This document shows, one piece after another, positions 29,880-58,400 of a DNA stretch of 64,000 nt; the stretch's first letter is position 1; each line of letters starts with the position of its first letter. The translations under genes were made by a program, and so were the position numbers. The notes below the pieces were generated by a model. That model made no database searches and was not told where the DNA came from. It saw only the letters and a program-made list of their open reading frames with translations. Source of the DNA: Lentzea sp. NBRC 105346 (lineage in GTDB: Bacteria > Actinomycetota > Actinomycetes > Mycobacteriales > Pseudonocardiaceae); the NCBI RefSeq assembly GCF_030269605.1, contig NZ_BSTQ01000001.1:124001-188000 (forward strand). The letters run 5' to 3'.

Positions 29880-32454
29880 ATGGACTTAGCGGTCGTCGGG
29901 TTCTCCTGTCGTGTGCCGGGTGCGTCCTCGCCGGAGGAGTTCTGGACACTGCTGCGCACCGGCGTGGACGTGGCGGGTCGCCCACTCGACGGCGTCGACC
30001 TCTTCGACGCGGCGTTCTTCGGCATCTCGCCCCGCGAGGCCGACGTCATGGATCCGCAGCAGCGGCTCGCGCTGGAACTCGCGTGGGAGGCGTTCGAGCA
30101 CGCGGGAGTCCGTCCTGGTGGCCGGGCCGGTGTCTTCGTCGGCGCGATGTGGGACGACTACGCCGAACTGTGCGGTGACGCGGCCGGCCGGCACGCGGTC
30201 ACCGGGCTGCGGCGCGGAATGATCGCGAACCGGATCTCGCACGTGCTGGGGTTGCGGGGACCCAGCACGACGATCGACACCGGTCAGTCGTCCTCCCTCG
30301 TCGCCGTGCACCAGGCGTGCCAGAGCCTGTGGTCGGGGGAGTCGGCGGTGGCGCTGGCAGGCGGGGTGAACCTCGTGCTCGCGCCGCACGACGAGGCGGC
30401 GTTCGGCACGCTCTCACCGGATGGTCGCTGCTTCACGTTCGATCACCGCGCCAACGGCTACGTGCGCGGTTCCGGCGGCGGGTTCGTCCTGCTGAAGCCA
30501 CTCGCGGACGCGCTCGCCGACGGCGACCGGGTGCACTGCGTGGTGCGTGGAAGCGCGGTCAACCACGACGGCACCGCGGCGGGATTCACCGTCCCGTCCG
30601 CGGCCGCGCAAGAGGACGTCGTGCGCTCGGCCTGTGCACGGGCGGGCGTCCGTCCCGAGGACGTCGCCTACGTCGAGTTGCACGGCACCGGAACTCCGGT
30701 GGGCGACCCGGTGGAGGCCGCCGCGCTCGGCGCCGTGTTCGGGACGTCGCCGCGGCGCGTGGCCGTCGGATCCGTGAAGACGAACATCGGGCACCTGGAG
30801 AGCGCCGCGGGCGTGGCCGGGTTGCTCAAGACGGTCCTCGCGCTGGCACACGGGGAGATCCCGCCGAGTCTGAACTTCGAGCGCTCCGACCTGCCGCTGG
30901 AGTCCTACAACCTGAGCGTGCGGACAGCGCTCTCGCCGTGGCCGGACGGGCCGCGGGTGGCGGGGGTGAGCTCGTTCGGCCTGGGCGGCACCAACGCGCA
31001 CGTGATTCTTGAAGCGTCCCCTGTGGATAACTCGGTTTCCGGCCCGGAACTGTCGGACCGGCGTGGGACGATTGGAGTGGGGACCTCGGTCCCCCCATGG
31101 GGGGTTCCGCTTGTTGTTTCGGCGAAGTCCCCGGCTTCGCTGTGCGCGCAGATCGAGCTCATCCGCGACGTGCGGGCCGATCCGCTCGACGTCGGTTACT
31201 CGCTGCTGACGACGCGGTCGTCGTTCGATCATCGGGCCGTCCTGCTCGACGGGGTCGAGATCGCGCGCGGGCGTGCGACGGACGGGCGGCTCGGTTTCCT
31301 GTTCTCCGGGCAGGGAACGCAGCACCGCGACATGGGCCGGCGGTTGTACGAGGCCTTCCCGGTGTTCGCCGCCGCCTACGACGAGGTGCTGCGTCACCTG
31401 CGGGTGCCGGATCTCGACCCGGTGGAGACCGGGTTCGCGCAACCCGCGTTGTTCGCTTTCCAGGTGGCGCTGTTCCGGCTGGCCGAGTCGTGGGGTCTGC
31501 GGCCCGACTTCGTGGCCGGCCACTCCGTCGGCGAGCTCGCGGCCGCGCACTGCGCGGGCGTGTGGTCGCTCGCGGACGCGGCCACCGTCGTGGCGGCGCG
31601 GGCACGACTCATGCAGGTGCTGCCGCCTGGCGTGATGTTCGCGCTGCGCGCGGATCCAGACGAGGTCACCGGCGTCGACATCGCGGCCGTCAACGGGCCG
31701 CGGTCGATCGTGATCGCCGGTGACGAGGAGACCGTGGCAGGCGTCGCCGCGCGGTTCGAACACCGCAGACTCGACGTGACGCGGGCGTTCCATTCGGCAC
31801 ACGTGGACGCGATGCTCGACGAGTTCCGTGTCGTGCTGAACGCGGTGACGTACGCCGAGCCGTCCATTCCGTTCGCCGGTAAGGACGTCCGTTCGCCGGA
31901 GTACTGGGTGCGTCAGGCGCGCGACACCGTGCGATTCGCCGACGATGTCGCCCACCTGCGATCAGCGGGTGTGACGCACTTCGCCGAGATCGGGCCGGAC
32001 GGCGTGCTGTCCGCGCTGGTCGATGGTGCGGTTCCGTTGCTGCGCAAGGGACAGGACGAGTCGCGATCCGTCGTCCTCGGACTCGCGCGGCTGCACGTTG
32101 CCGGAGTCGGCGTGGACTGGTCGGAGTTCGTCCGCGGCGGGCGCCGGATCGAACTGCCGACGTACGCTTTCGACCGCCGCAGGCACTGGTTCGGCGAACG
32201 CGCCACCGCTCCCGCTCCGGTCATCGCGCGTGACCAGGCCGAGGTCGTGACGACGCAGGTCGCCCTCGTCCTCGGCCACGAACCATCCGATGTGGACATT
32301 CGCAGGACGTTCAAGGACCTCGGCTGCGACTCGGTCTCGATCGTGGAGCTGCGCAACGCCCTCTGTTCCGCGCTGGGACGTGACCTGCCCACGACGATCC
32401 TCTTCGACCGGCCGACGCCCGAAGCGCTCGTCCGTTTCCTCGACGGGGCGGACG
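29880..32454 (+). other. PKS loading module: KSQ-AT-ACP
   Basis: KSQ has DTGQSSS (Gln136). The AT (about residues 471-715) has GHSVGE (Ser549) and an AFHS motif (TRAFHS), which are malonyl-type signatures. The ACP serine is Ser818 in GCDSVS. Known KSQ modules decarboxylate malonyl-ACP, so an acetyl starter is predicted. Confidence 0.88.
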
Positions 32455-55492: not shown

Positions 55493-58400
55493 CCGACGTC
55501 CAGCTGGCCGAAGTGGCGCAGGCTCTGCGCGACTCCTACCGCGAGGTCAAGCGACTGCGCGAGGTGATCGCCTCGGCCGAGGAGCCGATCGCGATCGTCT
55601 CGATGAGCTGTCGTTTCCCAGGTGGAGTCACGACACCCGACGAGCTGTGGGCGTTGCTCGAAACCGGCGGCGACGCCGTGTCGACGGTCCCCGCCGACCG
55701 CGGGTGGGAGGTGACCGGCCATGGCGGGTTCCTCGACACCGCGGCCGACTTCGACCCCGACTTCTTCGGGATCTCACCGCGCGAGGCCCTTGCCATGGAC
55801 CCGCAGCAGCGCCTGCTGCTCGAACTCGCCTGGGAGGCGCTGGAACGCGCCGGCGTCGAGGCGACATCGCTGCGCGGCAGCCGCACCGGCGTGTTCGTCG
55901 GCACCAACGGCCAGGACTACGCCGTGCTCGCCGAGCGGTCACCTGCCGCCGAGGGCTTCCTGGCGGTGGGCAACGCGGCCGCGGTGTTCAGCGGACGGAT
56001 CGCGTACGCGTTCGGGCTGGAAGGGCCCGCGGTCACGATCGACACCGCGTGCTCGTCCTCGCTGGTCGCCCTGCATTCGGCGGTACGGGCACTGCGGGCG
56101 GGGGAGTGCTCGTCGGCGCTCGTCGGCGGCGTGACCGTGATGGCGACACCGCGCGCGTTCAGCGAGTTCCGGCGGCAGAACGGCCTCGCGTCCGACGGCC
56201 GCTGCAAGTCGTTCTCCGCCGCGGCGGACGGCGTGGGGCTCGCCGAAGGAGCCGGGATGCTCCTCGTCGAACGCCTTTCCGACGCTCGCCGGCTGGGCCA
56301 CCCCGTGCTCGCCGTCCTGCGCGGGTCGGCGGTGAACTCCGACGGCGCCTCCAACGGCCTCACCGCGCCGAACGGGCTGGCGCAGGAGAAGGTGATCCGC
56401 GCCGCGCTCGCCGCCGCCCAGCTGTCCACTTCGGACGTTGACGTGGTGGAGGCGCACGGCACCGGCACGACCCTCGGTGACCCGATCGAGGCTGCGGCGT
56501 TGCTCGCCACCTACGGGCAGGACCGTTCGACGCCGGTGTTGCTGGGGTCGGTGAAGTCGAACATCGGTCACACGCAGGCGGCTGCGGGTGTGGCGGGTGT
56601 GATCAAGATGGTGCTGGCGATGCGGCATGGTGTGGTGCCCGCTTCGTTGCACGTCTCCGAGCCGTCGCCGCATGTCGATTGGTCGGCGGGTGCGGTCGAG
56701 TTGGCGACCTCGACCCAGGATTGGCCTTCGGCGGGTCGGCTGCGTCGTGCGGCGGTGTCGTCGTTCGGCATCAGTGGCACGAACGCGCACGTGATTCTTG
56801 AAGAGTGCCCTGTGGATAACTCCATTTCGGGCCCGGAACTGTCAGATCCTCGTGAGACGCTTAAGAAGGGGGCTTCGCGTCCCCTGGCGGGGGGCCAGGC
56901 GGAATCGATTCCGTGGTTGGTGTCGGCGAAGTCCGAGTTCGCGCTGCGCGAATACGTGGAGCTGATCAAGCGAGTCGACGGCGATCCGCGGGACATCGCG
57001 CACACGCTGGCCCGGCGCACCGCCTTCGACCACCGCGCCGTAGTCGTCGACGGCGAGGTCGTGAGCACGGGCCGTGCCGTCCGTGGACCGCTCGGCTTCC
57101 TGTTCGCGGGTCAGGGAACGCAACGCGCGGATATGGCCCGTGCGCTGTACGACGCGTTCCCGGCTTTCGCCCGCGCCTACGACGAAGTCCGTCGTCACGT
57201 CGACATCCCGGACCTCGACCCCGCCCAGACCGGTTACGCGCAGCCTGCGCTGTTCGCGTTGGAGGTCGCGCAGTTCCGGCTGCTCGAGTCCTGGGGCGTC
57301 CGGCCCGCCTACCTGATCGGGCACTCGCTCGGCGAGCTCGCCGCCGCACACTGCGCGGGAGTCTGGACCCTGTCCGACGCGGCGAAGATCGTCGCCGCAC
57401 GCGCGGCGTTGATGCAGGCCTTGCCGCCGGGCGGCGCGATGGTCGCGGTGCGCGCGACGGAAACCGAGATCGAGCTCGTCGACGGAGTGTCGATCGCCGC
57501 CGTCAACGGACCCGGCTCGGTTGTGCTGTCCGGCGACGAGGACGCCGTGCTCGCCCTCGCGTCACGCTGGCAACACCGGCGCCTGAAGACCAGCCACGCC
57601 TTCCACTCCGCGCACATGGACCCGATTCTCGACCGGTTCCGCCAGGTCGTCGCCGAGGCCGAGTTCCACGAACCACGCATCCCCATCGTCGGCGCGGACC
57701 CGGCGAACCCCGAGTACTGGGTGCGGCAACTGCGCGACACGGTGCGGTTCGCCGACGCCGTCCGCTGGACCGCCGGCCACGGTGTGCGGACGTTCGTCGA
57801 GCTCGGCCCGGACGCGACGCTCTCCGCGCTGGCCCAGGAGTGCGGCGACGTCGCGACCGTGCCGATGCGGGACGACGCGATGGCGCGGCTGCCGGTCGAC
57901 TGGCCCGCGCTCACCTCCGCGGGCCGCCTCGCCGACCTGCCGACCTACCCGTTCCAACGGCAGCGGTACTGGCTCGAGCCCACCGACACCGGTGACGTCC
58001 GCTGGGCCGGTCTGGACGCCATGAGCCATTCGCTGCTCTCCGCTTCGCTCGAGCTCGCCGAGGGCATCGTCATGACCGGGCGGCTCTCGGTGCGGACGCA
58101 TCCCTGGCTCGCCGACCACGGCGTCTTCGGCACGATCGTCGTGCCGGGCACCGCGTTGCTCGAACTCGCACTGCGCGCCGCCGGTCAGATCGGCTGCGAC
58201 ACCGTCGACGAGCTGGTGCTGCACACCCCGCTCACACTGTCCGAAGAGGACGGTGTGGTCGTGAGGGTGACCCTGTCCGGGCACCGGATCTCGATCGACA
58301 CGAGGCAGGACGGCCGGTGGACCCGCAACGCCGACGGCCTGGTGTCCACTTCCGCCGGCGAACCGGTCTCGTTCACCTGGCCGGACGACGCCGAGCCACT

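What the first reader, a model, noticed from the sequence alone, without database searches (positions are those of the whole stretch)
31022..56913. DnaA-box-like 9-mers at the head of a conserved element in seven of eight PKS KS-AT linkers
Every complete KS-AT linker except that of module 7 contains TGTGGATAA (reverse complement TTATCCACA, the consensus DnaA box) or, in module 5, two TGTGGACAA (TTGTCCACA, the streptomycete form). Starts are 31022, 33698, 38081, 42605, 46822, 52411, 52429 and 56811. The 9-mer encodes part of a recurring VDNS peptide, yet in genes with very strong G/C at third positions the GAT codon is kept in all six TGTGGATAA copies. A G-run motif follows at exactly 57 bp in six of the seven elements. 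Linkers normally drift, so this is either recent homogenisation between modules or a DNA-level function such as DnaA titration, a recombination site or a captured repeat.
Basis: partly seen in the sequence, partly recalled or inferred. Interest (0 to 1): 0.75.

Follow-up and report, generated by a model that had tools for sequence, protein, structure and literature searches.

The report
Protein-invading DNA repeat in polyketide synthases
In this actinomycete (genus Lentzea) a short repeat scattered through the genome sits, still readable as protein, inside several unrelated genes and in most examined linkers of its giant antibiotic-type enzymes, where the copies stay unusually alike at the DNA level.

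Summary
Seven of the window's eight complete KS-AT linkers carry TGTGGAYAA at the stated places; codon shuffling gives 0.07 TGTGGATAA against 6 seen. It is not a lone DnaA site but the head of a captured interspersed repeat. A profile built only from linker copies finds 18 non-PKS places at E<=0.01; a profile built only from dispersed copies finds the linkers and gives 93 non-PKS matches in this 9.4 Mb genome, its 35 source copies among them. Of 74 dispersed copies examined, 55 are intergenic (1 between divergent genes) and 19 lie inside 14 candidate ORFs. For glycerate kinase and HrpB helicase, 23 of 23 other Lentzea genomes lack the insert. Between clusters, linker copies share 84-90% of codons at same-residue sites against 55-56% in the adjoining KS (56 of 56 pairs), so the likeness is at DNA level. 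The closest known kind is the Rickettsia palindromic element; it is not a GRINS by published thresholds. DnaA titration and promoter function remain open: 18 of 74 dispersed copies carry the box. How the repeat moves is unknown.

The parts
31022..31128 (+). KS-AT linker element (type A): TGTGGATAA box 31022-31030, repeat body 31041-31128
   Evidence: R2 E 7.3e-7
33698..33803 (+). linker element, type B: box 33698-33706, body 33717-33803
   Evidence: E 2e-6
38081..38186 (+). linker element, type B: box 38081-38089, body 38100-38186
   Evidence: E 1.8e-7
42605..42710 (+). linker element, type B: box 42605-42613, body 42624-42710
   Evidence: E 1.2e-7
46822..46927 (+). linker element, type A: box 46822-46830, body 46841-46927; carries TTGTCAGAC-N8-TACGAT
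   Evidence: E 5.1e-6
52316..52398 (-). second copy of the repeat, reversed, in the same linker (module 5); read in frame as [16 protein letters not shown]
   Evidence: E 2.8e-4; E 0.00995
52411..52437 (+). two TGTGGACAA boxes 18 bp apart, between the two head-to-head copies
52460..52547 (+). forward repeat copy of the module 5 linker
   Evidence: (E 5.1e-4)
56811..56916 (+). linker element, type B: box 56811-56819, body 56830-56916
   Evidence: E 3.5e-8
61339..61632 (+). KS-AT linker without the element (internal control)
   Evidence: no R1 or R2 match listed there

Best explanation
The elements are copies of a short interspersed repeat of the genus Lentzea. The repeat has a head, CCGGAAyTGTCRG, then about 28 bp on a G/C-rich palindromic block, and in one subfamily one or two TGTGGAYAA boxes about 30 bp upstream. 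It is multiplied in the window's species, lies mostly between genes and rarely between divergent ones, and also lies in frame inside protein genes, adding about 24 residues in HrpB and about 49 for two copies in glycerate kinase (shown). One sense frame and one antisense frame are usually free of stops, so an insertion can be tolerated in flexible linkers (frames shown; tolerance inferred). A box-bearing copy entered a KS-AT linker in or before the shared history of several Lentzea PKS clusters. It was then copied from linker to linker, within and between clusters, by short-tract recombination such as gene conversion or by repeated insertion (inferred from codon identity that is high in the tract and low beyond it). 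The agent that moves the repeat is unknown.
For: Linker-only model R1 (22 linker copies) finds, besides 27 PKS copies, 18 non-PKS places at E<=0.01 in its own genome, best 1.7e-7, several over nearly the full length; only 150 of 4690 candidates were scored. Dispersed-only model R2 (35 copies, no linker) finds 7 forward and 1 reversed copy in the window linkers and copies in other clusters and species. In the own genome R2 gives 116 matches at E<=0.01 (150 of 4950 candidates scored), of which I count 23 in PKS linkers and 93 elsewhere, the 35 model copies among the latter by construction. Spacing agrees: box to TGTC is 29 bp in the simple linkers against 30-31 in 7 of 8 same-orientation dispersed copies. 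Of 74 dispersed copies examined, 19 lie inside 14 candidate ORFs and 55 between genes: 25 convergent, 28 co-directional, 1 divergent, 1 undecided. Pfam finds domains in all 14 ORFs. Empty sites: 23 of 23 other Lentzea genomes for glycerate kinase and 23 of 23 for HrpB. Frames: antisense frame open in 33 of 35 copies and sense frame in 30 of 35, against 52% for shuffled sequence. GC3 of element codons is 0.63-0.77 against 0.85-0.88 for the genes. Same-residue codon identity is higher in the element than in KS in 81 of 81 type-matched pairs, 56 of them between clusters. The exact 26-base core pattern occurs 41 times in the own genome, 1-7 times in each of 23 other Lentzea and 0 in 47 other genomes of the family; reversed control 1 in all.
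Against: No terminal target duplication, transposase or parent element was found, and transposase genes were not searched for. The dispersed copies used for R2 were found through R1 matches, so the two models are not independent, although they share no sequence. Insertion inside proteins is shown by empty sites in only two genes; in 7 of the 14 ORFs the element is nearer the N-terminus, where the start may be miscalled. The two window copies folded no better than shuffles (z +0.3 and +0.4), and no compensatory changes were seen on A3. The 5' edge of the homogenised tract grades into the conserved KS motif (0.75-0.80 at -75 to -45). Part of the linker likeness may be module duplication. Three of the 46 relatives' sites (two glycerate kinases plus one more, and two HrpB) show small other length changes at the same spot, so these are variable loops.
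Confidence: 0.8

Rival explanations
1. The boxes are kept because DnaA binds them: dozens of sites in the PKS regions titrate DnaA or tie replication state to PKS expression, and the rest of the element is passenger.
For: TTATCCACA and TTGTCCACA are listed as high-affinity DnaA boxes of E. coli and of M. tuberculosis and S. coelicolor (PMC4285127, passages seen). 49 of 49 VDN sites keep the 9-mer and alternate only between these two forms. The box is nearly invariant in A2, though those copies were picked by a box pattern.
Against: Only 18 of 74 dispersed copies examined have a box, in either orientation. The rest of the tract is homogenised as well. A few boxes have decayed. No binding data.
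Confidence: 0.1
2. The repeat is a DNA-damage promoter of the PafBC (RecA-NDp) type, spread as a regulatory module; linker copies would be internal promoters.
For: GAAYTGTCRG-N10-TANNNT occurs 56 times against 1 for the reversed pattern, and 0 with spacing 11; at least one copy sits just before a start codon, L116. The consensus letters TTGTCRgtg-N8-TAnnnT are recalled (Gamulin 2004); the papers seen only name the motif (passages).
Against: Between co-directional genes the repeat points with the genes in 11 cases and against them in 17, and 25 copies lie between convergent genes. Most dispersed copies and linkers have GAGAAT-like or GAGACG instead of TANNNT.
Confidence: 0.1
3. Plain module duplication: the linkers are alike because whole modules were duplicated recently.
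For: One 2.45-kb duplicated stretch at 81.7% identity spans the linkers at 38078 and 42602. Element identity within blocks is high.
Against: Between blocks the element is 0.83-0.85 identical while the KS end is 0.74-0.75 and AT 0.69-0.71, and codon identity differs even more.
Confidence: 0.08
4. Selection on the linker peptide (VDNS...) keeps the sequence.
For: The reading frame is intact in the linkers read and the peptide recurs.
Against: Codon identity among same-residue sites is 84-92%, far above KS; the 9-mer includes the last base of the preceding codon, T in 49 of 49; homologous DNA is found between genes.
Confidence: 0.03

Closest known systems
Rickettsia palindromic elements (RPE)
   Same: Short interspersed repeats found between genes and in frame inside unrelated protein genes
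   Different: Another lineage (G+C-rich actinomycete); shorter (about 80 against about 150 bp); a DnaA-box-like head in a subfamily; repeatedly lodged in PKS linkers; sequences were not compared. RPE facts from passages of the review PMC10969869; the original papers were not read
[quoted passage not shown]
   Same: Repeated DNA inside PKS genes, proposed to take part in gene conversion
   Different: GRINS are about 0.5-1 kb with strong GC and TA skew (definitions in PMC9899208 and PMC10394414, passages seen; the original paper is not held); these elements are about 0.1 kb, mostly weakly skewed, and occur outside PKS
REP/BIME, MITE and similar small bacterial repeats (features recalled)
   Same: Intergenic, G/C palindromes, rarely between divergent genes, multiplied in one species
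   Different: No REP-type transposase, terminal inverted repeats or target duplications demonstrated here
DnaA boxes of oriC and titration loci
   Same: Exact 9-mer, sometimes paired
   Different: Set at a near-fixed distance from another repeat and scattered in coding linkers; no binding shown

Membership tests
Protein-invading palindromic element (RPE-like, as a kind) | Many dispersed copies in one genome | tested here: met
   116 R2 matches at E<=0.01 in own genome, 35 of them model copies
Protein-invading palindromic element (RPE-like, as a kind) | In frame inside unrelated protein genes, absent from orthologues | tested here: met
   14 candidate ORFs, 7 of them with the copy at residue 142 or later; empty sites in 23 of 23 relatives for each of the two genes tested
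Protein-invading palindromic element (RPE-like, as a kind) | Stable hairpin or palindrome | tested here: inconclusive
   five copies folded: L206 z -3.0, L199 -1.4, L191 -1.2, two window copies +0.3 and +0.4; no covariation
Rickettsia RPE families proper | Sequence homology to known RPE families | not tested
   no RPE sequence was compared
GRINS | >=500 bp at >=80% identity to another part of the same PKS | tested here: not met
   elements about 0.1 kb; only one such pair in the 34.1 kb of window PKS, covering 2 of 7 elements
GRINS | mean |GC| and |TA| skew above 0.15 (or 0.25) | tested here: not met
   6 of 7 elements have |GC skew| below 0.15; the one at 31019 has 0.15/0.21 over only 87 bp; the 2.45-kb pair has 0.11/0.16
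MITE | Terminal inverted repeats and target-site duplication | tested here: inconclusive
   no clear inverted ends seen in A3; duplications not resolvable from the divergent empty sites
DnaA titration locus | Consensus DnaA boxes | tested here: met
DnaA titration locus | DnaA binding and effect on initiation | not testable with these tools
   needs binding or ChIP data
PafBC/RecA-NDp promoter | Motif at the right spacing, upstream of and pointing to genes | tested here: inconclusive
   motif 56 against 1 genome-wide, but co-directional dispersed copies point with the genes in 11 and against in 17

The most novel reading that the evidence does not exclude
The captured repeat works as a portable recombination tract: its spread into nearly every examined KS-AT linker gives the modules the same roughly 150-bp homology patch at a natural fusion boundary. 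This would promote gene conversion and module exchange within and between PKS clusters, with the DnaA-type boxes or a repeat-specific nuclease as the initiating feature.
Probability: 0.25. Interest if true: 0.85.

Novelty: new variant of a known kind. Interest (0 to 1): 0.62.

Why it matters
It shows a bacterial interspersed repeat that enters enzymes and assembly-line synthases of a G+C-rich actinomycete, a behaviour best known from Rickettsia. In the PKS it creates nearly identical DNA patches at the KS-AT linker, so the link between selfish repeats, gene conversion and polyketide diversification becomes testable in one genus. My searches of the open-licence PMC library listed no report of this repeat; only the listed titles and abstract beginnings were screened (8 to 15 rows a search, 2), so this is weak evidence of absence.

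Tried and rejected
Rejected: chance; protein-level conservation alone; GRINS; a known Rfam RNA (window and 12 of the dispersed loci searched at gathering threshold, no match at the elements). REP13E12/DUF222 upstream regions were considered from memory; none of the six downstream ORFs printed looked like one by eye, but no family search was made. A first pattern with 11 instead of 10 spacer bases gave 0 matches, which then served as a spacing control. Alignment A1 contained four misplaced other-species stretches and was dropped; A2 replaced it. RNAalifold on A3 found only 3 pairs and no covariation, so R2 is almost a sequence-only model. The HrpB half picked wrong frames (one relative shown, wrongly aligned) and was redone, where L319 gave no residues at the site; its genome is covered by L308. 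On checking, I found that one search had classed the co-directional intergenic copies by contig strand, not by the repeat's own direction; one search recounted this (11 with, 17 against). Not searched: transposase or RAYT genes, PafBC and DnaA genes, other strains of the species.

Rows left out of counts: of 93 non-PKS R2 matches I examined 74; the 19 others, which score low and partly belong to the inverted-end family noted in passing, were left out. R2 was built from 35 of the 39 places (L193, L208, L226 and L228 left out). R1 used 22 linker copies. each compared 18 of the 28 linkers found. In one search three C2 type B copies were dropped, so both profiles compare the two C1 blocks only (9 type B and 6 type A copies). 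Of the 18 loci, 8 are Lentzea; of the other 10 I scanned 3 (L151, L158, L161) for a KS-AT linker and none showed. Pfam was run on 2 of the 6 CoA-ligase-like proteins.
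Full report
What was checked. TGTGGATAA is far beyond chance, also after synonymous-codon shuffling (6 against a mean of 0.068); the two TGTGGACAA alone are not (largest of 1000 shuffles 3). The window is bases 124001-188000 of contig C1 of a 9.39 Mb genome. A search of 398 relatives for NAHVxLE-coding DNA followed within 34 bases by TGTGGAYAAC found it in 5 genomes, all of one genus (own 18, four others 1-3, reversed control 0). 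A slightly shortened pattern in named genomes gave 18 loci, 8 of them in Lentzea xinjiangensis, L. indica, L. terrae and L. nigeriaca. Seven linkers of unnamed and named loci are letter-identical by eye and their contig lengths agree, so the genus is Lentzea.

What it is. The genome holds 50 TGTGGATAA against 6 reversed controls. Besides PKS linkers at C1 155-208 kb, C1 942-978 kb and C2 408-436 and 501-506 kb, the rest are scattered. Several scattered ones share the layout of the linkers: box, about 30 bp, CCGGAAyTGTCRG, about 28 bp, G run and palindromes. To test this I built a sequence-only profile, R1, from 22 linker copies. In the whole genome it found 27 PKS copies and 18 further places at E<=0.01, the best at 1.7e-7. 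A second profile, R2, from 35 dispersed copies and no linker found 7 forward linker copies in the window (E 3.5e-8 to 5.1e-4) and one reversed copy (52316-52398, E 2.8e-4), and copies in the other clusters and species, some only weakly. In the whole genome it gave 116 matches at E<=0.01 although only 150 of 4950 candidates were scored; 23 are in PKS linkers and 93 elsewhere, the model's own copies included. Homology of linker elements and dispersed repeats is therefore supported both ways, with the reserve that R2's copies were found through R1.

Where the repeat lives. Of 74 dispersed copies examined, 25 lie between convergent genes, 28 between co-directional genes, 1 between divergent genes, 1 is undecided, and 19 lie inside 14 candidate ORFs. 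Between co-directional genes the repeat points with the genes in 11 cases and against them in 17. All 14 ORFs carry Pfam domains. In seven genes the copy starts at residue 142 or later of the ORF: glycerate kinase (two tandem copies), HrpB helicase, a LuxR-type regulator (two), two ABC transporters, a D-Ala-D-Ala carboxypeptidase and a FabA-domain protein. In the other seven it lies nearer the N-terminus (residues 18 to 128), where the start codon may be miscalled. Read in the sense frame the repeat gives PELSDPxGR..., in the antisense frame SILPxxTDNSG. For glycerate kinase and HrpB, orthologues of all 23 other Lentzea genomes lack the insert; a few of them show small other length changes at the same loop. 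In six other Lentzea genomes one protein carries an in-frame copy in the same place; the two tested are CoA-binding/ATP-grasp proteins, so some insertions look old and tolerated.

Distribution. An exact 26-base core pattern occurs 41 times here, 1-7 times in each of 23 other Lentzea, 3 times in one genome of another family of the order, and in none of the other 94 of 119 genomes searched; reversed control 1 in all. R2 at E<=1e-5 is met in 24 of 24 Lentzea (own 57, which is the cap, others 3-21) and in 3 of 56 other genomes (57 candidates per genome scored). This species has the largest number in both searches.

The box. Of 74 dispersed copies, 18 have TGTGGAYAA in one or the other orientation upstream of TGTC, the nearest at 30-33 bp in 16 and at 42-43 bp in 2; five have a second box 18 bp further and two have one at another distance. 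None has it 80-160 bp downstream of TGTC, and none was found in 87.9 kb of flanks. Module 5 of the window shows the same 18-bp pair, set between two head-to-head copies of the repeat. In linkers all 49 VDN sites read TGTGGAYAA, 18 with GAT and 14 with GAC here, 17 with GAC elsewhere; a few former sites have decayed. Both forms are listed high-affinity DnaA boxes (PMC4285127, passages). The box is thus a genuine module of one subfamily, but DnaA binding is untested.

Homogenisation. Between the PKS blocks the element is 0.83-0.85 identical, while the KS end is 0.74-0.75 and AT 0.69-0.71. Among codons for the same residue, 84% (type A) and 90% (type B) are identical between blocks against 56% and 55% in the last 80 KS codons; the element exceeds KS in 81 of 81 type-matched pairs, 56 of them between blocks. 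Type B identity is 0.79-1.00 from -30 to +120 of the box, 0.75 to +150 and about 0.5 beyond; on the 5' side it grades into the conserved KS motif (0.75-0.80). Type A profiles fall after +75, where lengths differ. I infer copying at DNA level, by conversion or repeated insertion. By R1 score the dispersed copies (at most 34 bits) are less like the linkers than the linkers are like each other (60-94 bits, in a model built from most of them), so linker-to-linker copying seems the main route; this step is inferred.

What it is like. Small bacterial repeats that lie in frame within genes are known best as Rickettsia palindromic elements (review PMC10969869, passages). By kind this repeat behaves like them; by sequence it was not compared. 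GRINS, the known repeats of PKS genes, are longer and skewed (PMC9899208, PMC10394414, passages). One 2.45-kb pair at 81.7% identity exists in the window PKS with skews 0.11 and 0.16, covering 2 of 7 elements, so the elements are not GRINS, though a conversion role may be shared. The head also resembles the actinobacterial RecA-NDp/PafBC promoter motif (letters recalled), and a related motif with exact spacing occurs 56 times against 1 in this genome. The lack of the expected direction argues against promoter function for the family as a whole.

Limits. The genome is a draft of 67 contigs and modular PKS genes can be misassembled. Gene calls in fetched loci are mine (ORF length and third-position G+C), checked by Pfam only for the 14 ORFs and three others. 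E-values of the models are rough. Search candidates were capped, so copy counts are lower bounds. 'Blocks' are stretches of contigs; whether C2:501-506 kb belongs to the same cluster as C2:408-436 kb was not tested.

Noticed in passing
window 52022-52090, 56488-56556, 63811-63879, all - strand: Rfam ASpks (RF01782, described as a TB antisense pks RNA) reaches gathering score three times inside PKS ORFs; probably shared coding sequence rather than RNA genes.
   Followed up: no
L112/L113, L119/L120, L125/L126 (C4:244807, C7:324767, C11:248567): A second intergenic repeat of about 100 bp with inverted ends of the form GAAyTGTCGG, like a small inverted-repeat element; its ends match the head of the repeat studied here.
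   Followed up: partly
L217 (C1:849920-850583): A LuxR-type regulator carries two copies of the repeat and, between them, a tandem peptide array of the PAIAEPGTDG kind.
   Followed up: no
L355 (C2:140735-140817): A FabA-domain protein carries a reversed copy followed closely by VDNS, a box-plus-repeat layout as in the PKS linkers.
   Followed up: no
L232, L236, L239, L242, L243, L245: Six other Lentzea genomes share an in-frame copy at the same place of one protein; in the two tested it lies between the Succ_CoA_lig and ATP-grasp domains, so that insertion looks old.
   Followed up: partly
L116 (C6:28491): The motif GAATTGTCGGTG-N8-TACGGT ends a few bases before the ATG of a 175-aa ORF with an HELAH metalloprotease-like motif (seen by eye), looking like a real promoter of a nearly leaderless gene.
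   Followed up: no
L059, L063, L064, L075, L081: Two TGTGGAYAA-like boxes 18 bp apart (one with a mismatch in L075) lie about 42 and 60 bp before a TGTCRG motif in other intergenic stretches, a second fixed layout.
   Followed up: no
window 36800-39248 and 41369-43765: The only long duplication (2.45 kb, 81.7%) found within the window PKS spans two element-bearing linkers.
   Followed up: no
window 38074-38204 and other type B linkers: Type B linkers mostly end in the palindrome GGAATCGATTCC, also present in other Lentzea linkers with a type A body.
   Followed up: no
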